From Clostridiales bacterium (GTDB taxonomy: Bacteria; Bacillota; Clostridia; Christensenellales; Pumilibacteraceae), in NCBI GenBank assembly GCA_022508445.1, contig JAFLVG010000003.1, positions 62,001 to 126,000 of the forward strand: 64,000 bases of DNA. The letters run 5' to 3'. Within the stretch, counting starts at the first letter, position 1. Each line of letters starts with the position of its first letter. The position numbers and the translations under genes are program-made. Below the pieces are notes generated by a model that worked only from the letters and a program-made list of their open reading frames with translations, made no database searches and was not told where the DNA came from. Positions 1 to 14,945 of this stretch are shown piece by piece.

Positions 1-3000
1 ACGTAGCGGTTGAATTCCAACCTTTGTATTCCTGTAATATCGTCGGCTCTTCCAATTCGGGGTTTTGCAACGAGCCGTACACCCAACTGATTTTGGCGCT
101 GTTTGTACTTTCGGTTGAAACACTCCATTTCGTCGTAATTTGCAATACCTTAAACGAAATATCTTCGTCCAATTTAAGACCTGCGTAAGTAATTGTTTCG
201 GCAATGGAAACGGCTATGGTGTAGTCACCTGCATACAAAGACGAAAGATAAAGCACCAACGCCTCGAAGGCCGCTTTTGCACTTCCTTCTTCCGCCGCGC
301 TTATCGTATGGGTGGTGACGCTGCTTTTTACCGTATATACTATCGTTTCGATGCCGTGGTCCGCACCGGGTTGTGTCAACTTTGACTTGTCGAATTCGCC
401 CCAAACCCAATTGCCGCCGATTGCAAATACGGGCGCCCATTTGTTTCCCGCAGGCGAAACCTTAAAGGTTGTGTACGCGCTCACCGCTTCGTAGTTGACG
501 GTATCCGCCAAAGCCGCAATAACGGTTATATTGTATGTGCCTATCGATAACTCGTCGAGAGCCGAAATAAGAGCTAATACCTGACCGTCGTCTCTGACGC
601 CCAGATTAACCGCAACGGTTTTGGATTGACCTATGCCTGTGGTGGAGTTAACGATTGTGTACGTCAAGATATAGTTGTCGAATGCTTTGATTTCGGCTGT
701 TATAAGCACCGAACTTTTCCAGCCGGCGTTGCTCCATTCGAGTTCGGCTTCCGGAGTTTGTTTCCATTCAAGCGCTTTCTTTTTTATTTCAAACTTGAAT
801 GTTGCCGAAATCTCGGTATAATTGTCCGTTCCGAGCACGGTAGCAACCAAGAGATAGCTGCCGGCATGTGCGGTTGCAAGACTTTCTTTCGCTATCTCGG
901 CGCCGTTTATAACCCATGTGCCGCCGTCGTTTCGCGCAGGGAAATATGTATAAACTATCGGATCGTTATACTTGGCGCTGGCTCCGTTGTCTTTGGGTTC
1001 GTTGGGTTGATCTCCGTAAGTCCAATCTGCTATGGACGGCTTCTTGCTCTCGTCGAGCCAAGCATTAGTCGCCTTGCTTACAGAGAAACGAATATCGCGC
1101 GAGATCGAAGCGTAGTTGCCGAACTTGCTATCCTCAGGCACTTCCGCATGCAGGTTGTATCTGCCGCCGTATTTGCCGCCCGCAGTGAGCTTAATTAGCT
1201 TATTGTCTTTGACAAGCGCTTTCAAAAAGTCCTCATATTCAAGCTTATTGAACCCTTCGACATAGCCCTCGACCGTGTTGCCGTCGTCATCCAAATACTG
1301 AACGGTGTACTCGGTCTTGCCGAATTTTGCAACACCGTTTGTAAATGTAATCGTTGAAACATCGTCGTCGTACGTCCAACCCAATATCGAAGGGATAGCG
1401 CCCGTCCATTCGTTTGCGGCCTGCGTAATGATGAATGTAACGGACTGGCTCAAATCCCCGTAGTTCTTCGTGCCTAATAATGTTACCGACAAAGTGTAAC
1501 CGCCGACATTCAATGTTTTGAGTGCATTTACGGTTTCCTCACTGAGCCCGCCGTCATCCGTAACTTCAAGCGACATCTCCCATGTTGCATCCTCGTCATC
1601 ATCCGGCGAACTTGCGAAATCAATTCCCCTGTGCAATGTGTACGTAATCTTTTTGGCCGGATCTTCGTTATATTTAGCTGCGGCGGCGCGGAAACTGCCT
1701 TCGATAAAACTGCCGTATGCCCAACCGACCATAACCGGCGAAGTCTCCCAAGCATTTTCCGCCTGTGCAACAGTAAATATCGTGGACGTCGAAAGGTCCG
1801 CGTAATTTTTCGTGCCGATCAAACGCGCGACGAGCGTATATGTGTCGCACGGCAAGGCTTTAAGTTTATCTTCAACCTTAACTCCGTTTATCACATCGGT
1901 CAATTTGGTAAAGCTCCATTCCCCTTCGCCCGAAACGGTTGTGCCGGTATAGAGCGTGTACGTAACAGTATTGCCTTCGGTGTTATAATACGCCGCACCG
2001 TCTTTGAAATTATCGCTCGTAAAGCCTTTGTACGACCAACCGACCATGTACGGAATTTCGGTCCACCGGTTGGACGTTTGCATTACGTTTACTTTTGCAT
2101 AATCTGATTCGGCTGTGAAAAACTCTTTTACGTTGACTGTTTCGCCGTTTTTGATTGGGGTGACCTTGCTGTCGAGATAGTACTCGCCGTAGCCTAACCG
2201 GTTAAGCACGCTTGCTACGTTTTCTTCCTCGGTGTCAGGAACCTGCCCTATGCCGTCCACGGTAAAGTAATGACCGTTGCTATCAAATGAGCCGTCGAGA
2301 TTTAACCATTTGAATTGCCCCCCTTCCTTTTGACCTATGCGGAAGGATATGACGGTGGAGCTATCTTTGAATCGAAGATCGTATGTGATGGCATTTGCGG
2401 ACTTGTCAAAGCTGTCGTAATACCACGACGTCATTCTCGGCGCGATTGCCCACCCGTTTTCGGCAGGGAGAATGTTATAGTAAACTTTAAGCACGTTGCC
2501 GGACAGAACGAAATATTTATCGAAATTTACAGACTTATCGAGATCGTTAAACCAAGTCGTCTCATTCGGTTTCGTCAGCGTGAGCGTGACGGAGACTTGG
2601 CCGACGTTGACGTAGTCGGCGTCGTCATACGTTACCGTGAAATACGAATTCGGGTTGTTGACGGTTGTGTGAACTTCTCTGCCGGTATATGTGCCGTCAT
2701 TTAAATATAAGTCATCGGTATCTATAATATTTTTGTACAGCGCATTAATACTTACGCCTGTGGACAGCCTTAATCTGAAACTGCGATCCGTGCGGTCGGC
2801 AGAATCGGCGCCGCCGGCAGTAACATAGTTTTTGGCGGAAATGCTGTAATACACGGTGTACGTGCCGATAATGGAAAACGATTCCAACATTTTTTCGTGA
2901 TAAATGTACTCACTGCCGCCGTACCCCTCGCGATTGTACTTTATGATTACTTTGGTATCGTAATAATCCTCTGCTTGCTCGTCCGTCAGCGTTGCCCAAT

Positions 3001-4714
3001 ACTTTCCGCGCGATTCCTTCGTCCTGTATTTTAACGATAGACCGAGCGCCTCTAATTCTTGCGCTATATCCTTGTGCATCTGCTTTGCGCCCAAGGCGTA
3101 TGTATTTAAGTACTTATAAAGCTCCCCGGCTTGTTCGGGTTTGTCTACACTGTCACCGCGTATCTTTTCGTGCAACACGGTCAAGCTTCCGGAATCGAGC
3201 TCGGCAGGCACAACATACAGCTTGTATTCACCGGTTATTTTTTGCGTCTTCTCTGCATTGGTGTAATATATGATTTTAAGCGTGTACGTGCCTGCGGGCA
3301 TATACTTGTTTAAATAGTACTGAATTGTATTCTTTTCGTCAACATAAGAATAGTCGTCGGATTCTTTCCATTTTTGGTTACCTAAGTCGGTCTTGCCGGT
3401 ACCACTATTGTCATGTACCCACAATGTATAGTGCTCGAATTGACTGAGCTCTCTTACGGTTGAGTGGAACGTGCCGTCGGTTGACTCGTATTCGATTGAA
3501 AACAACACTCTTCCGTTGTCGGTGGCGCCTACGGTAGGCTCATTGATCGTTATTTCGTCGCCGAACGTTACCGTATCGGTAATGGCAAAAGGCTTATCAC
3601 TGTCGGGAGTGACGAAATCCTCATCGTTGTAATCATTGATGTTTCCGTATTCTCCGTTATCTTTTTGATGGATAATCGCAAAAGGGGAATAAGGCTCGCC
3701 ACCGTTTTTAAAACCGTTTAAGCCGATACCTCTGTTGTTGTCTGTTTTGACTATATACCAATATTTTTTGAGCGTGAAGGAGGTGTTCGTCCTGTCCTTT
3801 TCGGGCACGCTCAATCCCCTATAATTGTCGATTAGCGCGGACTCGGCGCCGTAGATAAATTCATAGTTTTCAGGTGCTTTAAATTTGAGCGCCGCAACGT
3901 ACTCGCTGGAATTAGAAAACTTAACACCTTCACGGCTTGTGGTTGTAAGTCTAATGCCGCCTTTTCCTTCGCTATCCCCTCCGTATCTGTAATAGGACTG
4001 GATGCCCGCTTGCTTTTCGGCTTCCGTTAACCAATCCGCTCTTCGCTTTTCATTAGTATCATTCGCAAACCACTCATCTTTAAGCTTTATTGTTTTTTCG
4101 GTGCCATCATGGTTGTAAGTGGAATTTGTAACCGTTCTTACCCCGATTGTCGCTTGTTCGTCCACCTGCACAAAATACCAACCGTCATTATGTTGGTAAA
4201 GCGTGGTAATATCGCCGTGCGCAAGCCATTGAGACTCACTCGATGCATTTACAAACGGTTTAAACTTGTTGACTTCAATAAGAATCGGAGTGCCGTAAAC
4301 AACGATTGAATCGTTATAAGGCTCGACGCCTTCCGCCAAAGGCACCACCTCGAATTCGTATGTGCCGGCGTTGCGCACGCTTGTAGTTTCGTCCGTCCTG
4401 ACAGTTCCGTCAAGATATGTATACTTGGTAAGATTAACGATATACTCTTCGCTGTTGAGTTCGAGCGCGGTGTAGTAATCTATGCACTCGTCCTCGCCGT
4501 CGCCTATTGTATAGTCCTTGCCGTCAATCCTGTACGTTTGACCGAACGTGAAATGCTTTCTTGCGTCCGGCGTATCGTCGCCGACAGTTGAGTTGTTGCG
4601 AGCGCCGTTTTGCGAAACGCCGAAAACCGCGCAGAATACTGCACATAACGCCAAAATACATACTACGATTATCGAAGTAACTGTTCTTTTTCTCTTCATT
4701 TCGGACTTACTCAT
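1..4714 (-). CDS. Large secreted repeat-built surface protein, C-terminus beyond window
   Basis: The minus-strand frame stays open from an ATG at 4714 to the left edge, giving about 1571 residues with no stop. Codon phase is the same at the start, near 3058, near 1798 and at the edge, so no net frameshift is seen. The N-terminus (MKRKRTVTS, then a hydrophobic run ending AVFGVSQ) is a signal peptide or anchor. From about 2100 down to 1 there are at least seven divergent units of roughly 90-115 residues. Each opens with N-x-W and a GWxYG-like motif and ends with a GTYTL...GTKNYxxLS...FxVxQA-like motif, resembling MBG/YDG or Ig-like adhesin repeats. A GGGG-type ribosome site lies upstream (AGGGGAAG); an internal ATG at 4699 is an alternative start. 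The anchor signal, if any, lies outside the window. Function is inferred as adhesin or surface-layer-like only. Confidence 0.8.
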   Translation of the reverse strand, partial: MSKSEMKRKRTVTSIIVVCILALCAVFCAVFGVSQNGARNNSTVGDDTPDARKHFTFGQTYRIDGKDYTIGDGEDECIDYYTALELNSEEYIVNLTKYTYLDGTVRTDETTSVRNAGTYEFEVVPLAEGVEPYNDSIVVYGTPILIEVNKFKPFVNASSESQWLAHGDITTLYQHNDGWYFVQVDEQATIGVRTVTNSTYNHDGTEKTIKLKDEWFANDTNEKRRADWLTEAEKQAGIQSYYRYGGDSEGKGGIRLTTTSREGVKFSNSSEYVAALKFKAPENYEFIYGAESALIDNYRGLSVPEKDRTNTSFTLKKYWYIVKTDNNRGIGLNGFKNGGEPYSPFAIIHQKDNGEYGNINDYNDEDFVTPDSDKPFAITDTVTFGDEITINEPTVGATDNGRVLFSIEYESTDGTFHSTVRELSQFEHYTLWVHDNSGTGKTDLGNQKWKESDDYSYVDEKNTIQYYLNKYMPAGTYTLKIIYYTNAEKTQKITGEYKLYVVPAELDSGSLTVLHEKIRGDSVDKPEQAGELYKYLNTYALGAKQMHKDIAQELEALGLSLKYRTKESRGKYWATLTDEQAEDYYDTKVIIKYNREGYGGSEYIYHEKMLESFSIIGTYTVYYSISAKNYVTAGGADSADRTDRSFRLRLSTGVSINALYKNIIDTDDLYLNDGTYTGREVHTTVNNPNSYFTVTYDDADYVNVGQVSVTLTLTKPNETTWFNDLDKSVNFDKYFVLSGNVLKVYYNILPAENGWAIAPRMTSWYYDSFDKSANAITYDLRFKDSSTVISFRIGQKEGGQFKWLNLDGSFDSNGHYFTVDGIGQVPDTEEENVASVLNRLGYGEYYLDSKVTPIKNGETVNVKEFFTAESDYAKVNVMQTSNRWTEIPYMVGWSYKGFTSDNFKDGAAYYNTEGNTVTYTLYTGTTVSGEGEWSFTKLTDVINGVKVEDKLKALPCDTYTLVARLIGTKNYADLSTSTIFTVAQAENAWETSPVMVGWAYGSFIEGSFRAAAAKYNEDPAKKITYTLHRGIDFASSPDDDEDATWEMSLEVTDDGGLSEETVNALKTLNVGGYTLSVTLLGTKNYGDLSQSVTFIITQAANEWTGAIPSILGWTYDDDVSTITFTNGVAKFGKTEYTVQYLDDDGNTVEGYVEGFNKLEYEDFLKALVKDNKLIKLTAGGKYGGRYNLHAEVPEDSKFGNYASISRDIRFSVSKATNAWLDESKKPSIADWTYGDQPNEPKDNGASAKYNDPIVYTYFPARNDGGTWVINGAEIAKESLATAHAGSYLLVATVLGTDNYTEISATFKFEIKKKALEWKQTPEAELEWSNAGWKSSVLITAEIKAFDNYILTYTIVNSTTGIGQSKTVAVNLGVRDDGQVLALISALDELSIGTYNITVIAALADTVNYEAVSAYTTFKVSPAGNKWAPVFAIGGNWVWGEFDKSKLTQPGADHGIETIVYTVKSSVTTHTISAAEEGSAKAAFEALVLYLSSLYAGDYTIAVSIAETITYAGLKLDEDISFKVLQITTKWSVSTESTNSAKISWVYGSLQNPELEEPTILQEYKGWNSTAT

Positions 4715-4970: not shown

Positions 4971-5156
4971 CAAACTCACTTTCGGTAATAAGCGTTGTCG
5001 TCATACGACGTCCGTTTGCACGATTGATACAAAATCATCCGTCGTCGTCCGTCAGTTCGTTATTTAGTTCGGTCCACCCGCCCCACTGTAATTGTGTCGT
5101 ATTAATTGACGGAATTAAACCGAAAGTTGGCTGTATAGTAGTTGAATGTACTAAAT

Positions 5157-5191
5157 AACAAAAAAAGACCAAGTTTGTTAGACAAGGTCTT
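5157..5191 (-). terminator. Terminator inside the left repeat copy
   Basis: On the minus strand AAGACC, a 15-base loop and GGTCTT are followed by a run of T. It is the same hairpin that follows intact trxB at 9446-9476, here downstream of the trxB remnant. Confidence 0.7.
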
Positions 5192-5289
5192 AATGTTGAT
5201 GATTATTAGCTGATGTAAAGTCAGTCAGTTAGTTTGAAGAAGATTTTTGTATTCTTCGTGCAGATTTGGTTTGAAGCTTTACACCTCTA

Positions 5290-5447
5290 TTAAAACAATT
5301 CTTTTAATGCAGTGGAAACAGCTATAGCGCCGGCGGCAGCGGTGGTTAGCTGGCGCGCCGCCTTTTCACGGCAGTCGCCGGCGACGTGTATGTCCCTTAC
5401 TCATGTACGGTAGCACTGTCGGCAATTGTACATCCGCTATCGTCGAG
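5290..5447 (-). pseudogene. Decayed C-terminal fragment of a second thioredoxin reductase gene
   Basis: Reading leftward, translation gives LDDSGCTIAD, a one-base deletion, then VAGDCREKAARQLTTAAA, GAIAV and STALKELF followed by TAA. This matches the last ~53 residues of the intact TrxB at 9575 (LDEDGYIVTD ... AAGDCRKKVVRQLTTAAADG ... MKDIF). The fragment carries the frameshift and a missing codon (Asp after TTAAA), and has nothing upstream except the stop codon of the membrane helical-repeat gene 3 bp away. It keeps the trxB-type terminator and about 280 bp of homologous downstream flank. It is a relic, not a functional gene. Confidence 0.85.
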
Positions 5448-5449
5448 AA

Positions 5450-7828
5450 TTAAATAACCTTTAAATACAATCGCTGCCCACCATCAACGCAAACCTCTCC
5501 TTCTATATATGCCCCGTCAATCAGCTTGCCTATTTGTTCTATAAATTTATTTTTTTCATCTTCATAAGCTAAATCGAACATCCGTGTAAAAAATGACTCC
5601 TTATTCGATTCTCTGCTCAAATCTTCTGTGAACTTTTGAATAAATTCATGGAATGTAAATTTCGAACCGTTTTCGTTTGTAACGTGTGTAATTATGCCAT
5701 CATCGTTTTTAGATAATTGAAGAGCAGCGGCCGGTTTATAAATTTTATAACACGTCAAGCACATTTCAGAAATTTTATAAGTGTCAGAATAAAAATCCGT
5801 ATCCAAACTAAACCATAGTGTTTTATTGCTCCAATATTTCGCACAAATATGAACCATTCCCTTTATACATTCTTCTCTTACATTGCTATTGGTAATTTTA
5901 TTATAAAATTCGTAGTACGCAACCAATGCCCGCATATAATTCGGAACGCTGTTGGCGAATGTAGGTACGCCTGCAAAAGACTCGCGCACATAACCTTCGA
6001 TTTCATTAAAGTAGCTTTTTATATTTTTCTCATCCTCGCTTTCTTTTTTGTCTAAATCATATGAAAGTGCTTTTATTACGGCAAACAACGACGGAATATA
6101 CAAAAACTTAATGTTTACGCGTTCTTGATCATTATCTTGCCACTCCTTTTCCCTGATATATGTAAAATAGGCATTATCGATATATTCAAACGTTCTATTC
6201 AAATAAAAGTCATTGCGCTTACCGCTCGCTAAATAATTATGTAAGCCGATATGCGCGCATTGTGCCGCCAATAAAGGATCACACGGCGCCAACGAGTAAC
6301 CGTATCGTGCGGCCTTTTCGGAATCGCGCCACTCCTTACAAGCCTTATGTATTTCGGACAATTCAAGATAATACTTGGGGTCGCGTTTTTCCTTTATAAG
6401 ATTCTCCAATAAATTCTTTGCTTTTTTGAACAAATCATCTTTATACGAAAGCATCTCAACACCTATATTGAATTGCGCAAAATACTTGCCTTCAATGTGC
6501 AACTGTTCCACTGCCTTTTCGAGCAACTCATCTTTACCCATCAGCTTCAGTTGCATATCGGGTCCGATATCTTTTATCGTATTGTAGCTTAACTTTCCGA
6601 GCGTTTTGGCAACCGAGAATCTACAGCCGTTATACAACACCTTATCGATTTCGCTTATATTTAATTTGGATTTCCAATCATCGTGCAACAGTATATGACA
6701 GGCCTCGCTCACATAAAGGTTGGACAGTCCACTATAAATATCCTTTTTGTGCGTCCCGTCTTTCGTCTTTTCATTAGTCGAATAACGAGTTGCTATTTGG
6801 TACACCCTCGCCATAATGGAGCATATAAGGAATTTTCTTTGACGCTCGTCGCATTTTTCCACGCTGTTAATCATTTCGCAATACGCGTAGCTGTCGTTAA
6901 TAAATTTAACTATTTTGATGTCGTTCTGCACTTTGGAAATGTTGCCAGACTTTTCTATAGTATCTATTTCCATTCGCGCCATAATATAATTCAAAACGAC
7001 ATACGCCTTGCTGTTTTTTCCGTACGGCAAATTTTTAACACAACTAATAGCTTCTCGAACCGCCCAAATGACGCCTTCGAAGTCGCGCGTCCTGCCAGCT
7101 ACGTGCCTGTACAAATTGATAACCTTATAAGTAAGCAATGCAAATTTGTTATCGAACTCTATATCTGCGCCGATTTTCTCTTTACTATCCTCGCATTCGA
7201 ATAAATTCAGCAACATTACCCAAACATCGCGAATTTTATTTTTACAATCACCGTAATTTCCTCTGTCGTAACACAACAACGCGTTGATATACCCGATATT
7301 TACCTTTGTTTCCGAATTATCGCGATCGTTTTCGTCCACCGAAAATCCGTTTACAATACTTTCGGCAAGATCGGTATAACGATTGTCAAAGTCCGTTTTA
7401 ATCTTATCGATCTCGTCTAACTTTTCAATCGCATTAGACATCTCCTCATAGTTCGCTTTAATTGCGTTGTCGGTTTTTTTCTTCCCTGATTTTATCTTTT
7501 TGTCGATGTCATCAGAAATTCTTTCCACCTCTTTTTTATTGAGAGTATATGAGGTAAGCGGAACAACGAGCGTCAATAATGTGATCAGTAACGACGCTAT
7601 CGAAATAAAGACGTTTGTATTTCCATCGCTTGTCGGCTTGTACGCAAAAATTACGGCGGAAGCAATAATTCCGCCGACAAGCCCGAGCATAATAAGACCC
7701 AAAGTTACAAGTACTATATAGCTGATAACTCTTCTTTGTTTTTTGCCGTTGCTATCGCCGTCCGTGGGAACGCTTTTTTTCGTCTCATAATCACTACATT
7801 CTTTTACAGTGTTTCTTTTGAATTTCAT
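5450..7828 (-). CDS. Membrane-anchored helical-repeat (TPR-like) protein of unknown function
   Basis: A 792-residue protein. The start is set at the ATG at 7828 (MKFKRNTVK), which has AAAGGA eight bases upstream; a longer reading from 7906 would overlap the upstream aaRS gene. A short basic cytoplasmic segment precedes two membrane helices at about residues 35-60 and 75-95. A charged coiled-coil follows (to ~150), then more than 600 residues of mostly helical sequence with TPR/SEL1-like alternation of Tyr, Ala and Leu. No catalytic motif was recognised. It lies 22 bp downstream of the AsnRS-like gene and probably shares its promoter. The DNA is visibly more AT-rich than its neighbours, with many AAA, TAT and ATA codons, and it abuts a trxB relic, which suggests acquired DNA. 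A scaffold or sensor role is a guess. Confidence 0.75.
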   Translation of the reverse strand: MKFKRNTVKECSDYETKKSVPTDGDSNGKKQRRVISYIVLVTLGLIMLGLVGGIIASAVIFAYKPTSDGNTNVFISIASLLITLLTLVVPLTSYTLNKKEVERISDDIDKKIKSGKKKTDNAIKANYEEMSNAIEKLDEIDKIKTDFDNRYTDLAESIVNGFSVDENDRDNSETKVNIGYINALLCYDRGNYGDCKNKIRDVWVMLLNLFECEDSKEKIGADIEFDNKFALLTYKVINLYRHVAGRTRDFEGVIWAVREAISCVKNLPYGKNSKAYVVLNYIMARMEIDTIEKSGNISKVQNDIKIVKFINDSYAYCEMINSVEKCDERQRKFLICSIMARVYQIATRYSTNEKTKDGTHKKDIYSGLSNLYVSEACHILLHDDWKSKLNISEIDKVLYNGCRFSVAKTLGKLSYNTIKDIGPDMQLKLMGKDELLEKAVEQLHIEGKYFAQFNIGVEMLSYKDDLFKKAKNLLENLIKEKRDPKYYLELSEIHKACKEWRDSEKAARYGYSLAPCDPLLAAQCAHIGLHNYLASGKRNDFYLNRTFEYIDNAYFTYIREKEWQDNDQERVNIKFLYIPSLFAVIKALSYDLDKKESEDEKNIKSYFNEIEGYVRESFAGVPTFANSVPNYMRALVAYYEFYNKITNSNVREECIKGMVHICAKYWSNKTLWFSLDTDFYSDTYKISEMCLTCYKIYKPAAALQLSKNDDGIITHVTNENGSKFTFHEFIQKFTEDLSRESNKESFFTRMFDLAYEDEKNKFIEQIGKLIDGAYIEGEVCVDGGQRLYLKVI

Positions 7829-7850
7829 AATATTTTTCCTTTGTATAAGA

Positions 7851-9140
7851 TTACGGATATATTTTACGCCCGATACTTCTCGGAAAAGGTATGGCGTCGC
7901 GCACATGATTCAAATTGAACAAACACTTTATCAGCCGTTCAAGCCCCATACCCATACCACAATGCGGAATGGTACCTACGCGCCGAAGATCCACAAACCA
8001 CTCGTAATCCGCGTTTTTATCCTTACCCTTTTCGGCAAGGCGAGCGCGTAGCTCGGCAGGATCGGTAATTTTTTCGGCAATACCCAAAAGCTCGCCGTGA
8101 TTGTTGTGCCAAATGAGATCGGCGGTCATGGTAAGGCGTTTGTCGTCCTCGCAGTACCTGTACGGAAAGCCTTCTATATGAGCGGGATTGCGCGTTACCC
8201 ATACCGGCGCGCCGAAATACTCCGCCAAGCATTTTTCGCCGCGCGCATTAATGCTTTTACCAAACGGAATGGAAATACCGCGTTTTTCGAGCAGGGCGAG
8301 CGCGTCCGTGTAAGTTATGCGTTGGAACGGCGTTTTAAGTGCTGCGTTATCAAATTTTGTTCCGAGTATGGCGCAAAGCTCGTCGGAACATGCTTCAACC
8401 TTTTGTGTGACAAAAGCAAGCATATTTTCGACTACGGCAAAGAATTCGTCGTACGCGCAAAAAGCACATTCTGATTTTACGTGCCAATACTCGTTCAAAT
8501 GCCGTTTGCTCGATGTTTCCTGCGCTCGAAAACTCGGGCCTATATTGTACACCTTTTCCAGCGCATGAACGGCACTTTCCAAATAGAATCCTACGCATTG
8601 CGTTAAAAAAACATTATGGTCGCTGTTTTCAAAATCAGTTTTAATCGCCGTTTCTTCGTCGTAAAGTATGACTGGGCAAAGTATTGGCGCGGTTATCTCA
8701 TAATAGTTTTCGCTGTCAAACCACTCCCGCACCGCGCGTGTGACCGCGTTGCGCGCCTTCATAGCGGCGATAAGTTTTTCGTTGCGCAAGTACAAATGCC
8801 TGTTGGAAAGAACCTTGTCGGCATTGTCCGACGAAAATACGTCGAATTTACAGCGCGGCGATGGATCGAGTTGCAATTCCACTTTTCCTATTGTAGTAAT
8901 ACTGACCGCTTTTATTTCCAAATCGTCATTATGCACGCAAACCGTGCCGGTAACACAAACGGATTCTTCCTTTTTACAACCGAAATCGCTGTCCGCAATC
9001 ACCTGCACTTTACCCGTGGAATCCACAACATCGAAAAATGTTTTAGTCTTACCACTACGCATAGACGCTATCCAACCGTAAATCGTGATAGTTATATTTT
9101 CGTTGATAGTTTTCAAATCAGATATAAACAATTTTTTCAT
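7851..9140 (-). CDS. Divergent asparaginyl-tRNA synthetase-like class II aaRS
   Basis: A 429-residue protein with an N-terminal OB-fold anticodon-binding domain (IYGWIASMRSGKTKTFFDV, about residues 20-100) and a class IIb catalytic core. Motif 2 is FRAQETSSKRHLNEYWHV and motif 3 is GMGMGLERL followed by HVRDAIPFPRS, the IPFPR ending being typical of AsnRS. It is shorter than usual AsnRS (about 460) and several core segments are unusual, for example FLTQCVGFYLESAV. The start at 9140 is preferred over 9173 because the likely promoter overlaps 9173. It may be the cell's AsnRS or an extra paralogue; stand-alone AsnRS-like proteins can make free asparagine or modify other molecules. Its place inside a repeat-flanked, partly AT-rich segment favours an accessory paralogue, but this is inference. 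Confidence 0.75.
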   Translation of the reverse strand: MKKLFISDLKTINENITITIYGWIASMRSGKTKTFFDVVDSTGKVQVIADSDFGCKKEESVCVTGTVCVHNDDLEIKAVSITTIGKVELQLDPSPRCKFDVFSSDNADKVLSNRHLYLRNEKLIAAMKARNAVTRAVREWFDSENYYEITAPILCPVILYDEETAIKTDFENSDHNVFLTQCVGFYLESAVHALEKVYNIGPSFRAQETSSKRHLNEYWHVKSECAFCAYDEFFAVVENMLAFVTQKVEACSDELCAILGTKFDNAALKTPFQRITYTDALALLEKRGISIPFGKSINARGEKCLAEYFGAPVWVTRNPAHIEGFPYRYCEDDKRLTMTADLIWHNNHGELLGIAEKITDPAELRARLAEKGKDKNADYEWFVDLRRVGTIPHCGMGMGLERLIKCLFNLNHVRDAIPFPRSIGRKIYP

Positions 9141-9163
9141 AATAACATTTGCCTGTTTATAAT

Positions 9164-9192
9164 ATGTTATCATTTACCGATTATTTTGTCAA
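9164..9192 (-). promoter_or_regulatory. Probable promoter of the aaRS-like / membrane-protein pair
   Basis: TTGACA (9192-9187), 17 bases, then TAACAT (9169-9164). The -10 overlaps the upstream in-frame ATG at 9173, which argues that translation begins at 9140. Confidence 0.45.
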
Positions 9193-9295
9193 TGCTTTAA
9201 TGTCGATCGCTGTTAGGTTAAACCCGAATTTATCCCGCTACACTAACATTTTGAGCTTCCTATTATACTGTATCGTTATTTTATGGCAGTGCAAC

Positions 9296-9735
9296 TGCCG
9301 TTTGCACAAAAGATACAAAATTGTTCGTCATAATCTGTCGTGCGTTCGTCGGCATAGTTCTACCCGACCGCTGTAATTATGTCGTGAGTTCGGACGAAAT
9401 TAAACCGAAAATTGGCAGTATAGTAGTTGAATGTACTAAATAAAAGAAAAAGACCAAGTTTGTTAGACAAGGTCTTAATGTTGATGATTATTTGATAATG
9501 TAAAGTCAGTCGTTTAGTTTGAAGAAGATTTCTGTATTCTTCGTGCAGATTCGGTTTGAAGCTTTACAAGCGTTTTAGAAAATGTCTTTCATTGCCGCGG
9601 AGACCGCGATTGCGCCGTCGGCAGCTGCGGTAGTAAGCTGACGAACGACTTTTTTTCTGCAATCGCCTGCGGCGTATACGCCCTTAATGTTTGTTCGGCA
9701 CATTTCGTCCGTCACGATGTAACCGTCTTCGTCGA
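9296..9735 (-). repeat. Right copy of the ~440-bp direct repeat
   Basis: Counterpart of 5011-5449. It contains the C-terminal coding end of intact trxB, its terminator and about 150 bp of further downstream flank. The outer end near 9296 is approximate. Together the two copies bracket the aaRS-like and membrane-protein genes. Confidence 0.8.
9446..9476 (-). terminator. Terminator of the nrdD-trxB operon
   Basis: On the minus strand AAGACC and GGTCTT enclose a 15-base loop and are followed by TTTTCTTTTA. It lies about 100 bp past the trxB stop codon. Confidence 0.75.
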
Positions 9736-10483
9736 GCTCCACCGGCGCATAAATCGTATTGTCGGGCTGTTGACCTATTGCGACGAACAAACCGTCGAGT
9801 TCGAGCATTTGCTTTTCGCCTTTCACGTTGAGCGTGACGCCCGTAAGCTCGTCATCGCCGATAAGCTCCTCGACTACGGCGTCTGTGATTATTCGTATCG
9901 AATTGAGTTCTTTCGCTCTGTCGATGAGCGCTTGCTCCGCGCGGAATACGTCGCGCCTATGTAAAATGTACACAAGCCCGGCAATGCCGGCAAGATACAG
10001 CGCGTCTGTGAATGCGGCGTTGCCGCCGCCTACGACCGCAATCGTCTTGTCCTTGAAGAACGCGCCGTCGCACAGCGCGCAGTAGCTGACGCCCGAGCCG
10101 ATCAATCTCTCCTCGCCCGTAACGCCAAGCCGTCTGTGATCGCAGCCTGCCGCTATGATAACCGCTTTTGCAGTGTATCTGCCTATATCGGTAACAACGG
10201 TCGTGCACGAGCCCTCTGTTACGATTTTGGTGACCGTCTCGCACTTGAAGCTCGCACCCGCTTTTTCGGCCTGATCGAAAAGATCGGACGCGAACTGCGC
10301 ACCCGAAATGTTGACTATTCCGGGATAGTTTTCGACGTTGGGCGCGTCTACTATCTGACCGCCGAACGATTCACGCTCTATGACGAGCGTTTTCTTGTTC
10401 GCGCGGCATGCGTAAACGGCGGAAGACAAACCCGCCGTTCCGCCGCCTATTACTATAAAATCATACATGGTGTTTCTTAACAT
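9575..10483 (-). CDS. trxB: Thioredoxin-disulfide reductase
   Basis: A FAD/NADPH flavoprotein of 302 residues that reduces thioredoxin-like proteins in the cytoplasm. The N-terminal FAD motif is DFIVIGGGTAGLSSA. The redox-active pair is CALC at about residues 135-138 (CATC in the usual family). The NADPH motif is VVGGGNAAFTDAL with HRRDVFRA, and the C-terminal FAD motif is GVYAAGDCR. The start is either 10483 or the ATG five codons later (MYDFIV), which fits the family N-terminus better; neither has a strong ribosome site. It follows the redoxin-fused nrdD by 10 bp, so it probably recharges that redoxin domain. Its 3' end is duplicated at 5290-5447. Confidence 0.93.
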   Translation of the reverse strand: MLRNTMYDFIVIGGGTAGLSSAVYACRANKKTLVIERESFGGQIVDAPNVENYPGIVNISGAQFASDLFDQAEKAGASFKCETVTKIVTEGSCTTVVTDIGRYTAKAVIIAAGCDHRRLGVTGEERLIGSGVSYCALCDGAFFKDKTIAVVGGGNAAFTDALYLAGIAGLVYILHRRDVFRAEQALIDRAKELNSIRIITDAVVEELIGDDELTGVTLNVKGEKQMLELDGLFVAIGQQPDNTIYAPVELDEDGYIVTDEMCRTNIKGVYAAGDCRKKVVRQLTTAAADGAIAVSAAMKDIF

Positions 10484-10493
10484 GATTTTTTAA

Positions 10494-12866
10494 TTACTTC
10501 CCGCTGTTTTCCAAGAATTTGCGGATTTCCGCAACGCCTGCGTACTTCGCCGTTTCGGTGCCGTTGGTGACAACAAGCGTGGGCGCTTGCTTAACGCCGT
10601 ACTTCTTGGCGCTGTCCGGCTTTTCCACTGCGTTGACGATGTCCATAGCTATGCCTGCGTCTTGGAGCATGGGTATGGCTATTTTGCAGTTGGGGCAAGT
10701 CGGAGTCGTGAACAGCGAGTAATGCACCTCGCCCGTCACCTCGGCTTGTTTTTCTTCCTGCTTTACCGCGCACTTATGTCCGGTGTGCGGCGTGTCGTGC
10801 TTCATCGTGTTGTAAGTTCTGCGGTCCTTGAACTCCTGCGCCTTACCGTCGTTCCAATTCTGGACGGGACGGTAGTAACCTGTTATGCGGCTGTTGACCT
10901 CGGTCTTTTCGCCGCACTTCGGGCAGGTGTACACCTCGCCTGCGATGTAGCCGTGATTGCGGCACACCGAGTACGTCGGCGAGAGCGTGAAGTACGGGAG
11001 CTTGTAGTTTTCCGCAACGGTGCGGACGAGCTTTGCCGCCGCTTTCCAATCGGGCAGTTTTTCGCCGAGGAAGGTGTGGAAAACGGTACCAGAGGTGTAA
11101 AGCGTTTGCAGCTCGTCCTGAATGTCGAGCGCGCTGAACACGTCCTCGGTATAACCTACGGGCAGGTGCGAGCTGTTGGTGTAGTACGGTGTGCCGTTCT
11201 CGTTGGCTGTGATGATGTCGGGATAGCGCTGTTTGTCGTGCTTTGCAAGACGGTACGTCGTGGACTCTGCGGGCGTCGCTTCGAGGTTGTAAAGATCGCC
11301 GTACTGTTCTTGATATATTACGAGCCGCTCGCGCATGTGATTGAGAACGTCTTGCGCAAACTTTTGCACGCGCTCGTCTGTGAGATTGGCGCGAAGCCAT
11401 TTCGCGTTGAGTCCGGCCTCGTTCATGCCCACAAGTCCGATTGTCGAGAAATGGTTGTCGAACGTGCCGAGATAACGCTTTGTGTACGGGTACAAGCCCT
11501 CATCCATGAGCTTTGTGATGATGTCGCGCTTGATTTTGAGCGAACGCGCCGAAATGTCCATGAGCCTGTCGAGGCGGTTGTAGAAATCCTCCTCGTTTTC
11601 GGCAAGATACGCAATGCGCGGCATATTGATAGTTACAACGCCGACCGAGCCGGTGCTCTCGCCGCTTCCGAAGAATCCGCCCGACTTTTTGCGAAGCTCG
11701 CGAAGATCGAGGCGCAAGCGGCAGCACATACTGCGTATGTCGGACGGCTCCATGTCCGAATTGATGTAGTTTGAAAAGTACGGCGTGCCGTATTTTGCCG
11801 CCATCTCAAACAGCAAGCGGTTGTTTTCGTTATCCGACCAGTCGAAGTCGCGCGTGATTGAGTACGTAGGTATCGGGTATTGGAAGCCGCGGCCGTTGGC
11901 GTCGCCCTCGATCATGATCTCGATAAACGCCTTGTTGACCATGTCCATTTCCTTCTTGCAGTCCTTGTACTTGAAGTCCATGGGCTTGCCGCCTACGATA
12001 GCCTGCTGTTCGGCAAGATCGGGCGGAACCGTCCAATCGAGCGTAATATTGGAAAACGGCGCCTGAGTTCCCCAGCGCGACGGCGTGTTTACGCCGAAGA
12101 TGAACGACTCGATGCACTTTTTGACTTCGCTGTAAGTAAGCCCGTCAACCTTGACAAAGGGCGCAAGATATGTGTCGAAGGACGAGAACGCCTGCGCGCC
12201 TGCCCACTCGTTTTGCATAATGCCGAGGAAGTTGACCATCTGATTGCAAAGCGTCGCAAGATGGCTCGCCGGCGAGCTGCTGATTTTGCCCGAGATGCCG
12301 CCAAGTCCTTCTTGAATGAGCTGACGGAGCGACCAGCCTGCGCAGTAACCGGTGAGCATGGACATGTCGTGAATGTGAATGTCCGCATTGCGGTGCGCAT
12401 TGGCTATTTCCTCGTCGTAAATTTCGGACAGCCAATAGTTGGCGGTTATAGCGCCCGAGTTGGAAAGTATAAGACCGCCAACCGAATACGTGACGGTGGA
12501 GTTTTCCTTGACGCGCCAGTCCGAAGCTTTGACATAACTGTCCACAAGCTCTTTATAGTCCAAAATAGTGGACTTCATGTTGCGTATCTTTTCGCGTTGC
12601 TTGCGGTAAAGAATGTACGCCTTGGCAACGTCGGCATAGCCCGTTTGAATGAGTACCTGCTCTACGCTATCCTGTATGTCCTCGACGGCAACAAGCTCGT
12701 TCTTTACCTTGGAAGCAAAGTCCGCCGTAACGCGAAGCGCAATCAAATCTATGATGTCGTCGTTATACTGCTTTTCCTGCGCGTCGAACGCTTTTTTAAT
12801 GGCTTGACTGATTTTCGATATGTCAAACTCAGTCTGTTTTCCGTCCCTTTTGACTACCCTATACAT
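10494..12866 (-). CDS. nrdD: Anaerobic (class III) ribonucleoside-triphosphate reductase with C-terminal redoxin domain
   Basis: A 790-residue glycyl-radical enzyme making dNTPs without oxygen. Residues 1-95 are an ATP-cone (MYRVVKRDGKQTEFD). The catalytic body includes MCCRLRLDLRELRKKSGG and FGSGESTGSVGVV. A zinc motif (CRNHGY ... CPKCG) leads to the glycyl-radical loop RITGYYRPVQNWNDGK, with Gly near residue 663. Unusually the protein goes on: a linker and then about 75 residues of glutaredoxin/thioredoxin fold, starting EVHYSLFTTPTCPNC (CPNC at 724-727) and including KQAPTLVV with the cis-Pro. A perfect GGAGGT precedes the ATG. trxB follows immediately. No nrdG activase gene is in this window. 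The fused redoxin suggests a redoxin-dependent NrdD subtype rather than a formate-dependent one. Confidence 0.95.
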   Translation of the reverse strand: MYRVVKRDGKQTEFDISKISQAIKKAFDAQEKQYNDDIIDLIALRVTADFASKVKNELVAVEDIQDSVEQVLIQTGYADVAKAYILYRKQREKIRNMKSTILDYKELVDSYVKASDWRVKENSTVTYSVGGLILSNSGAITANYWLSEIYDEEIANAHRNADIHIHDMSMLTGYCAGWSLRQLIQEGLGGISGKISSSPASHLATLCNQMVNFLGIMQNEWAGAQAFSSFDTYLAPFVKVDGLTYSEVKKCIESFIFGVNTPSRWGTQAPFSNITLDWTVPPDLAEQQAIVGGKPMDFKYKDCKKEMDMVNKAFIEIMIEGDANGRGFQYPIPTYSITRDFDWSDNENNRLLFEMAAKYGTPYFSNYINSDMEPSDIRSMCCRLRLDLRELRKKSGGFFGSGESTGSVGVVTINMPRIAYLAENEEDFYNRLDRLMDISARSLKIKRDIITKLMDEGLYPYTKRYLGTFDNHFSTIGLVGMNEAGLNAKWLRANLTDERVQKFAQDVLNHMRERLVIYQEQYGDLYNLEATPAESTTYRLAKHDKQRYPDIITANENGTPYYTNSSHLPVGYTEDVFSALDIQDELQTLYTSGTVFHTFLGEKLPDWKAAAKLVRTVAENYKLPYFTLSPTYSVCRNHGYIAGEVYTCPKCGEKTEVNSRITGYYRPVQNWNDGKAQEFKDRRTYNTMKHDTPHTGHKCAVKQEEKQAEVTGEVHYSLFTTPTCPNCKIAIPMLQDAGIAMDIVNAVEKPDSAKKYGVKQAPTLVVTNGTETAKYAGVAEIRKFLENSGK

Positions 12867-13163: not shown

Positions 13164-14945
13164 CTAACTCTCGAAGTCGGCGACCTGTCTTATGTGCAAT
13201 ACAAACGTGCCGTTATCGAGCGGCGGCACGGCGATGCCGCGAGAAATGAGCGCCGCGCCCGAAAAAGTTTTATTGAGCTCGGCAACATAATAGATGTTAT
13301 GCTCGTCGAGGCCGATCGGCTTTATCACGGCTTTCCCCTTTTCGCTTCGCTCATACACTATGTACGCCTTTGACTTGTCCTTTGCGACCGTCATTATACA
13401 GCGGTCGCCGCCTGCGGCGTGCGGACGGTAAATATCGCCGAAGAGTATTTCGGATGCGTTGTCTTGGTACGAGAAAACTTGCGCGCGAACGGCGCGTTTA
13501 AAGTCGTCGCCGAGTTCGAGCGGATTGAACGCATACCCGAGACAACCGAGCGTCGCCAAGTCGAAGCGGGTTTTTAAAGCTTCGCCGCCGTTTACCGAAA
13601 CGGCGTTACGCATTGCGATGAGCGGATAGCAAAGCGTCTGCCCGTAACGCATATCGGATTGCAGATTGCCGAATTCCACCGTGATATTGTCGAAGCTCGC
13701 CGACAATTCGCCGCGAAGCGCATACATGCCGCGAGCGTATACGCTGTTGCCGTTTGGAATGTCGAATAAGACATATTCCACGCCGTACTTTTCGACCATG
13801 TCCGCAAAAGCGGCAATATATGCGCTCGCGGCTTGCGGATCGCCGAAGTCTGCGGCAAACATGCCGTCGTCCGTTTGCTTCGTTCCGCTTTTTGAGTACG
13901 CCGCCGATTTTTTGTCTATCTCGCACAGCTTTGCCGTAACGCCGAGTTTGATTCCCGCCGCCTTACACTCCTGCGCGAGCTTTTCCATAGCTTTATGTGA
14001 CACCTTGCAACAATCGACAGCGAAAACGTCGCAGCCGAGCTTTGTCGCCGCGACCGCCGCATCGCACAGCTTGCTTTCAGGTATTTCCGGGCAGAACAAC
14101 ACGATGGGGCGCCGCTCGGTGAGCATTTTGCCGTCCAAGTTTTCGCGAAGAATGTCGTGGAACACGCGCGACATGCCGCCGAGTCCGCTATCCGAATACA
14201 CCGACAGTATTTCGGGCGAATAGTAACTGCCGCCGCTTTCTATCTTGATTCCCTGCTTATCTTTGCAATATACGGTTACGCCGTCAATAGTCCGTTCCGC
14301 GACAACCGTGCCGTCGCCGTGCACGCACAAAAAGCCGTAGCTGTCGCCGTGACATTCGTCGGCCCTGCTGTCTGTCGCCGCAATAAATCCGTAAACGCCG
14401 TGTACCGCCGATTTTTTCTTATTTTCGCTCTCGCCCGAGCAAGCCGCACCGCTTTCGCGTACGATATCTCCGCGGTTTCCTATCGTCACGATATCGCAAT
14501 CGCCTTGCATTATATCAGTCGGCAAAGCCTTGACCGTCACGGTCTTTTCGCCGTCGTTGAAAATAACCGTTCTTGTCGCAAATCCGCCGCGCGAATACGG
14601 CGTTATATATACTTCGGCGCGCAAGCTCGCTTCGATCCCTTTCAGCGAAATTTTAAGAGTTTGACCGCCGTTTACAGACGGACAGATATTAGGTTTTTCG
14701 GGCAGTATTTCCGCGCCGTCAACCGTGAATCGAACATTGAGAGCTTTGCCGCCGCAAGAGATCGGATATGCCCCGTCGCCGAGCGCAAACACATCGTTCG
14801 ACGCGCCGCCGAGCGAAATCACGTCGTCCTCGAACTCGACGCGCTTGCCGAAATGTATGCGTCGAAGCGCTCCGTCATCGTTTTTGAGAATACAGCACGC
14901 CTCGCCGGCAGTCATATAGAAAACATTGTTTTCGGTTTTTATCAT
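13164..14945 (-). CDS. GH36-like (alpha-galactosidase family) protein, catalytic motifs degenerate
   Basis: A 593-residue protein with the layout of a GH36/melibiase: an N-terminal beta-sandwich (FGKRVEFEDDVISLGG, YSRGGFATRTVIFNDG), a TIM-barrel half with YVLFDIPNG and ITVEFGNLQSDMRYG, and a C-terminal beta domain. The usual KWDMNR nucleophile loop and GGGRxD/SDxxD loops are recognisable only by position, so activity is doubtful, and the protein is shorter than typical GH36 (about 730). GGAG lies five bases before the ATG at 14945; a GTG three bases upstream is the alternative. It is the last gene of an htpG-SDR-GH36 run, 9 bp after the SDR gene. Substrate unknown. Confidence 0.6.
   Translation of the reverse strand: MIKTENNVFYMTAGEACCILKNDDGALRRIHFGKRVEFEDDVISLGGASNDVFALGDGAYPISCGGKALNVRFTVDGAEILPEKPNICPSVNGGQTLKISLKGIEASLRAEVYITPYSRGGFATRTVIFNDGEKTVTVKALPTDIMQGDCDIVTIGNRGDIVRESGAACSGESENKKKSAVHGVYGFIAATDSRADECHGDSYGFLCVHGDGTVVAERTIDGVTVYCKDKQGIKIESGGSYYSPEILSVYSDSGLGGMSRVFHDILRENLDGKMLTERRPIVLFCPEIPESKLCDAAVAATKLGCDVFAVDCCKVSHKAMEKLAQECKAAGIKLGVTAKLCEIDKKSAAYSKSGTKQTDDGMFAADFGDPQAASAYIAAFADMVEKYGVEYVLFDIPNGNSVYARGMYALRGELSASFDNITVEFGNLQSDMRYGQTLCYPLIAMRNAVSVNGGEALKTRFDLATLGCLGYAFNPLELGDDFKRAVRAQVFSYQDNASEILFGDIYRPHAAGGDRCIMTVAKDKSKAYIVYERSEKGKAVIKPIGLDEHNIYYVAELNKTFSGAALISRGIAVPPLDNGTFVLHIRQVADFES

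What the first reader, a model, noticed from the sequence alone, without database searches (positions are those of the whole stretch)
5011..9735. trxB-derived direct repeat brackets a putative cargo pair
Two ~440-bp imperfect copies of the trxB 3' end plus its terminator and flank stand in the same orientation about 4.3 kb apart. The left copy is a decayed trxB fragment whose broken end touches the stop codon of an AT-rich membrane gene; the right copy is the working trxB. Between them lie only that gene and an AsnRS-like gene with its own promoter. This looks like insertion or capture of a two-gene module at a duplicated trxB 3' end, or a tandem trxB duplication later replaced.
Basis: partly seen in the sequence, partly recalled or inferred. 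Interest (0 to 1): 0.75.

Follow-up and report, generated by a model that had tools for sequence, protein, structure and literature searches.

The report
Relocated two-gene operon beside foreign trxB fragment
In an uncultured Clostridia genome, a rare two-gene operon (a strongly altered asparaginyl-tRNA-synthetase-like enzyme plus a membrane protein) sits between the working trxB gene and a broken, probably foreign piece of another trxB, at a different place from where two related species carry it, so it looks like an insertion by recombination; what the operon does is unknown.

Summary
The repeat is real: window 5011-5447 and 9298-9735, same orientation, 4.29 kb apart, 79% identical, the only two copies in the genome. 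It has two parts: intergenic element E (~265 bp after the trxB stop, ~94% identical in its first ~115 bp) and the trxB 3' coding end (only ~66% identical). The left trxB fragment is no recent duplicate of the resident trxB: ML placement puts it near other congeners' trxB (sister of the resident copy 8.2 lnL worse, AU p=0.018). The two bracketed genes are a conserved operon with its own promoter, found in 3 of 20 congeners and nowhere else searched. The other two carriers have it upstream of panT-coaX, without trxB sequence; here that site lacks it. Both outer flanks (nrdD-trxB; purF-like) keep an order seen in relatives, so insertion is the best reading, probably by homologous recombination through trxB/E. 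The enzyme keeps class-II ATP motifs and an OB-fold but lost the invariant asparagine-pocket residues; its partner (2 TM + TPR) differs far more than the enzyme between sister species. Function remains inference.

The parts
5453..7834 (-). Membrane-TPR gene (cargo gene 2, 794 aa): 2 TM helices, coiled coil, TPR superhelix; stop codon 5450-5452
   Evidence: ORF; no Pfam or NCBIfam family above cut-off; AF2 model and TPR-type PDB matches; homologues only in G009 (61%) and G005 (43%)
7854..9140 (-). AsnRS2, class IIb AsnRS-like gene (cargo gene 1, 429 aa)
   Evidence: Pfam tRNA-synt_2 + OB fold, below every NCBIfam cut-off; 78-79% identical in G009/G005; asparagine-pocket residues replaced
9164..9201 (-). 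Promoter of the operon (TTGACA-17-TAACAT, extended -10); similarity between the three loci ends about here
   Evidence: the same sequence read in L057 and L058
5290..5447 (-). Left repeat, coding part: decayed trxB 3' fragment of another trxB lineage
5013..5283 (-). Left copy of intergenic element E (contains a terminator-like hairpin around 5164-5193)
9300..9568 (-). Right copy of element E, downstream of the working trxB
9575..10483 (-). Resident intact trxB; its last ~160 bp form the coding part of the right repeat
   Evidence: its closest match is G016, compatible with the species grouping
10494..12866 (-). nrdD, conserved upstream neighbour of trxB

Best explanation
The 4.3 kb between the repeats is an insertion of a bare two-gene operon (promoter-AsnRS2-membrane TPR) into the region downstream of nrdD-trxB, which varies between species. 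Most likely it came in by ordinary homologous recombination: DNA from a related species carrying the operon plus a trxB-3'/E stretch paired with the resident trxB-E and integrated as by a single crossover. This left the intact resident trxB on one side and the truncated donor trxB plus E on the other. Shown: the repeat, the foreign or old origin of the left trxB piece, the operon at another site in sister species, the module-free alternative site here. Inferred: the single crossover, a circular donor, the direction of transfer. Function (inferred, weak): AsnRS2 is an ATP-using ligase that has lost asparagine recognition and works with a fast-changing membrane TPR partner in an accessory, conflict-type role.
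For: Repeat unique in the genome. Left trxB fragment placed away from the resident trxB (identities). Operon in only 3 of 20 congeners, absent from 396 genomes sampled across the order except this genus and from other GTDB species records with the patterns used. In G009/G005 it lies upstream of panT-coaX-hom; in G000 and G016 the same interval is glyS - small Cys-rich gene - panT. Similarity between loci stops at the promoter and at the last stop codon. Outer flanks keep an order seen elsewhere: nrdD-trxB in nearly all loci read, and a purF-like gene downstream of trxB on the same contig in G001, G002, G006 and here. AsnRS2 keeps motif-2 Arg, motif-3 GxGxGxER and OB-fold F35/Q46, but residues invariant in 24 AsnRS, Q190, E213, E228, G361 and R364 (1x54 numbering), are G, Q/K, K, I, K; long branch of 5.2 changes per site. 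G009 against G005: enzyme 88%, membrane protein 39%, although the flanks are 84-86% identical DNA.
Against: No donor molecule or junction intermediate is known; G009/G005 lack E and any trxB piece by the module. The placement rests on ~130-156 sites of a decayed sequence, and pseudogene decay can pull it to a deep branch. AsnRS2 divergence (78%) is about that of core genes between the same species (hom 76%, coaX 83%), so vertical descent with later relocation fits as well as transfer. The genomes are MAGs. No function was tested.
Confidence: 0.55

Rival explanations
1. Old tandem duplication of trxB-E in an ancestor, with the operon captured between the copies or the second trxB later eroded; relatives lost the second copy.
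For: Same orientation, shared E in both copies. The left fragment attaches at a deep branch, as an old paralogue would.
Against: No congener read keeps a second trxB of this type next to the first. A duplication within the lineage of this genome is disfavoured (AU p=0.018). It needs several independent losses.
Confidence: 0.25
2. Homology-facilitated illegitimate recombination: a linear fragment nrdD-trxB-E-AsnRS2-TPR from a relative recombined upstream in nrdD/trxB and was joined illegitimately into the native trxB, so that the left fragment is the native trxB end and the working trxB is the newcomer.
For: The left flank has a purF-like gene downstream, an order shared with G001/G002/G006, and the left trxB fragment attaches near G001/G002/G017. 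Such events are described in competent bacteria and in E. coli conjugation (PMC3240628).
Against: The resident trxB and nrdD show G016 as the closest match, as expected for native genes.
Confidence: 0.12
3. Site-specific integrative element using the trxB 3' end as attachment site.
For: Direct repeats at a gene 3' end with the gene kept intact resemble att sites.
Against: No integrase or relaxase between the repeats; the repeats are long and diverged; the same operon elsewhere has no such repeats.
Confidence: 0.05
4. Function alternative: AsnRS2 is a resistance-type second AsnRS that protects against an AsnRS inhibitor.
For: Duplicate aaRS genes at ~30% identity giving antibiotic resistance are known for SerRS, IleRS and TrpRS (PMC9437257). 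AsnRS2 is 26-33% identical to normal AsnRS.
Against: Resistance copies retain amino-acid specificity; here the acidic and arginine residues taken to contact the Asn side chain are both replaced by Lys.
Confidence: 0.12

Closest known systems
Insertion by single-crossover homologous recombination (Campbell-type), merodiploid formation and homology-facilitated illegitimate recombination in bacteria (PMC3784515, PMC3240628)
   Same: Foreign segment bracketed by two diverged copies of one homologous stretch, target gene kept intact.
   Different: The left copy is truncated exactly at the cargo's last stop codon; the donor molecule is unknown; the homology is a short 3' end plus an intergenic element.
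Asparaginyl-tRNA synthetase (class IIb; PDB 1x54, 5zg8)
   Same: OB-fold anticodon domain plus class II core, motif 2 Arg, motif 3 GxGxGxER.
   Different: Asn-pocket residues invariant in 24 AsnRS are replaced; about 26-33% identity; very long branch.
aaRS-like paralogues such as asparagine synthetase A / AS-AR and EpmA (PMC9437257)
   Same: Class II core reused outside normal charging.
   Different: AS-A lacks the tRNA-binding domain, AsnRS2 keeps it; AsnRS2 is coupled to a membrane TPR protein; NCBIfam scores are far below these families' cut-offs.

Membership tests
Asparagine--tRNA ligase (AsnRS) | Class II core with OB-fold and ATP motifs | tested here: met
   Pfam PF00152 and PF01336; motif residues mostly conserved, but motif-2 Glu213 is Q/K
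Asparagine--tRNA ligase (AsnRS) | Invariant Asn-pocket residues (Glu and Arg contacting the amide, PMC7387524; here taken to be E228 and R364 of 1x54, by alignment) | tested here: not met
   K and K in all three AsnRS2; also Q190G, E213Q/K, G361I
Asparagine--tRNA ligase (AsnRS) | Score above the NCBIfam equivalog cut-off | tested here: not met
   268.8 of 414 bits (PRK03932.1), 254.5 of 342.6 (asnS)
Asparagine--tRNA ligase (AsnRS) | Charges tRNA(Asn) with Asn | not testable with these tools
   needs biochemistry
Asparagine synthetase A-type paralogue | Absence of the tRNA-binding domain | tested here: not met
   OB fold present, residues 29-94 of the called ORF
Site-specific integrative element | Integrase within the element | tested here: not met
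   only two genes between the repeats
Site-specific integrative element | Same terminal repeats at other insertions | tested here: not met
   G009/G005 copies lack trxB and E sequence
Known anti-phage defence systems (PADLOC) | Match to a defence-protein model | tested here: inconclusive
   only weak hits of the 2-TM region: RTasSLATT E=0.0045, ZorB 0.006

The most novel reading that the evidence does not exclude
AsnRS2 and its membrane TPR partner form a new genus-restricted conflict or signalling system: an aaRS-derived enzyme with a new substrate makes a modified tRNA, peptide or nucleotide product that a hypervariable membrane TPR sensor/effector responds to.
Probability: 0.2. Interest if true: 0.75.

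Novelty: new variant of a known kind. Interest (0 to 1): 0.45.

Why it matters
The insertion itself is of a known kind, but it exposes a rare operon whose enzyme kept most of the ATP-binding and anticodon-binding parts of an asparaginyl-tRNA synthetase while losing its asparagine pocket, tied to a membrane partner that is only 39% identical between sister species whose enzymes are 88% identical. If real, this is a re-use of an aaRS that I found no record of, and a clear target for a substrate screen. The locus also shows how a short conserved gene end plus intergenic sequence can serve as the homology for gene insertion between congeneric species.

Tried and rejected
Rfam at permissive threshold: nothing meaningful in the repeat. 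Folding of E as an RNA: not better than shuffles apart from the terminator hairpin (z -1.5 and -0.7), so a structured-RNA reading was dropped. Mobile-element (MITE) reading of E: its ends form an imperfect inverted repeat of ~25 bp, but other genomes have one copy each, by trxB, in G014 and G019, plus a 45-bp remnant in G018; left open. Viral contigs: no relative of either protein and no copy of the E hairpin. Plasmids and phages: only ordinary AsnRS/AspRS at under 40% identity for the enzyme; nothing on plasmids for the membrane gene. A dedicated tRNA for AsnRS2: no tRNA near the operon in the window; the tRNA-Asn ~4 kb from the G009 copy lies beside rRNA-like sequence, so it looks like an ordinary rRNA-operon tRNA. 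Structure search of the membrane protein gave generic TPR matches (Z up to 14, within the range quoted for helical repeats), and the TM part was not modelled with confidence. Dating the E copies by shared sites: informative sites conflict (6/6/4).

Full report
1. Observation. The window lies at C23:62001-126000 of a 1.78 Mb genome; the two other carriers of the operon are recorded as uncultured Clostridia MAGs. The direct repeat is real and unique: 5011-5447 and 9298-9735. It is a mosaic: element E after the trxB stop (first ~115 bp 94%, middle 87%, far part ~63%), then the trxB coding end (66% over ~130 bp). The left trxB piece carries an in-frame stop and small deletions and begins 2 nt after the stop codon of the membrane gene.

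2. Where the left piece comes from. If it were a recent copy of the resident trxB it should group with it. Placed by likelihood on the trxB tree of the genus, it attaches near G001/G002/G017. The position next to the resident trxB is 8.2 lnL units worse (AU p=0.018), next to G016 equally bad. Caveat: few sites, decayed sequence. The resident trxB itself has G016 as closest match, as nrdD does; hom groups G000 with G016 and G007 and puts G009/G005 as their sister pair.

3. Element E. Among 74 genomes of the family it occurs only here (twice), in G014 and G019, where it follows a different trxB type (~43-44% aa), and as a 45-bp remnant in G018. It is therefore tied to trxB 3' ends but not to one trxB lineage, and its first part is more alike between species (about 92-97% here against G014) than the nrdD coding DNA (81%). 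It gives both trxB and the cargo operon a terminator-like hairpin. Why it is so conserved is unexplained.

4. The cargo is a module. [quoted passage not shown] Nothing outside promoter-to-stop is shared with the window. There the operon is upstream of panT-coaX-hom. In this genome and in G016 that position is occupied by glyS and a small Cys-rich gene. The operon was found in 3 of 20 congeners and in no other genome among 396 of the order at the thresholds used. A scan of the GTDB species records with two peptide patterns found only the same two close relatives.

5. How it got here. nrdD-trxB is kept on one side. On the other side a purF-like gene lies ~12 kb further on, as it also follows trxB on the same contig in G001, G002 and G006. 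So both outer flanks look resident and the interior looks inserted. A single crossover through the trxB/E homology with DNA carrying the operon plus a truncated trxB end gives exactly this layout. Homology-facilitated illegitimate recombination (PMC3240628) and unequal crossing-over as in transformation-induced merodiploids (PMC3784515) are the nearest documented processes. The exact route is inference.

6. What the cargo might do. AsnRS2 has the class IIb fold signature but scores below every curated NCBIfam cut-off and sits on a 5.2-changes-per-site branch. Of the positions invariant in 24 Bacillota AsnRS, it keeps motif-2 Arg, motif 3 and the OB-fold F35/Q46, and replaces Q190, E213, E228, G361 and R364 (1x54 numbering). 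The literature names one Glu and one Arg as the contacts to the Asn amide (PMC7387524); I equate them with E228 and R364 by alignment, which that paper does not state. Hence AsnRS2 probably no longer selects asparagine. The membrane protein has two predicted TM helices, a coiled coil and a TPR superhelix, with faint resemblance of the TM part to SLATT/ZorB models. Between G009 and G005 the enzyme is 88% and the membrane protein 39% identical although the flanks are 84-86% identical at DNA level. Uneven divergence of this sort is common for sensors in conflict systems (general knowledge), but no test of function was possible.

7. Verdict. Observation confirmed. Interest is moderate and rests mainly on the unusual enzyme and partner.

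Noticed in passing
window 10494-12866: nrdD carries a C-terminal thioredoxin/glutaredoxin-like domain (residues ~715-785, CPNC motif) and sits directly upstream of trxB: an anaerobic ribonucleotide reductase fused to its likely reductant.
   Followed up: no
L120:6858-7760 (G014) and L122:3033-3932 (G006): In some congeners the trxB next to nrdD is a different type (43-44% aa identity): an in-place replacement of trxB with nrdD kept.
   Followed up: partly
L057:11965-15540 (G009): Upstream of the AsnRS2 operon lies an array of 69-229 bp repeats (CCCATCATCTCGACCGAAACGAGC...) with a small GIY-YIG-like ORF at 14421-14750; part of it recurs in G003 (L095:10376-10487).
   Followed up: no
L057:15750-16284 (G009): The G009 copy of the operon is ~4 kb from a tRNA-Asn next to what reads like 5S and 23S rRNA ends (rRNA identity from reading, not tested).
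   Followed up: partly
L120:8372-13054 (G014): Downstream of trxB-E in G014 stands a row of four Sel1-like repeat proteins; G018 keeps the far end of E before the same first gene.
   Followed up: no
window 1-4714: Left flank: a 2459-aa surface-type protein with a signal-peptide-like start (C23:59335-66714) begins 0.3 kb from the left repeat.
   Followed up: no
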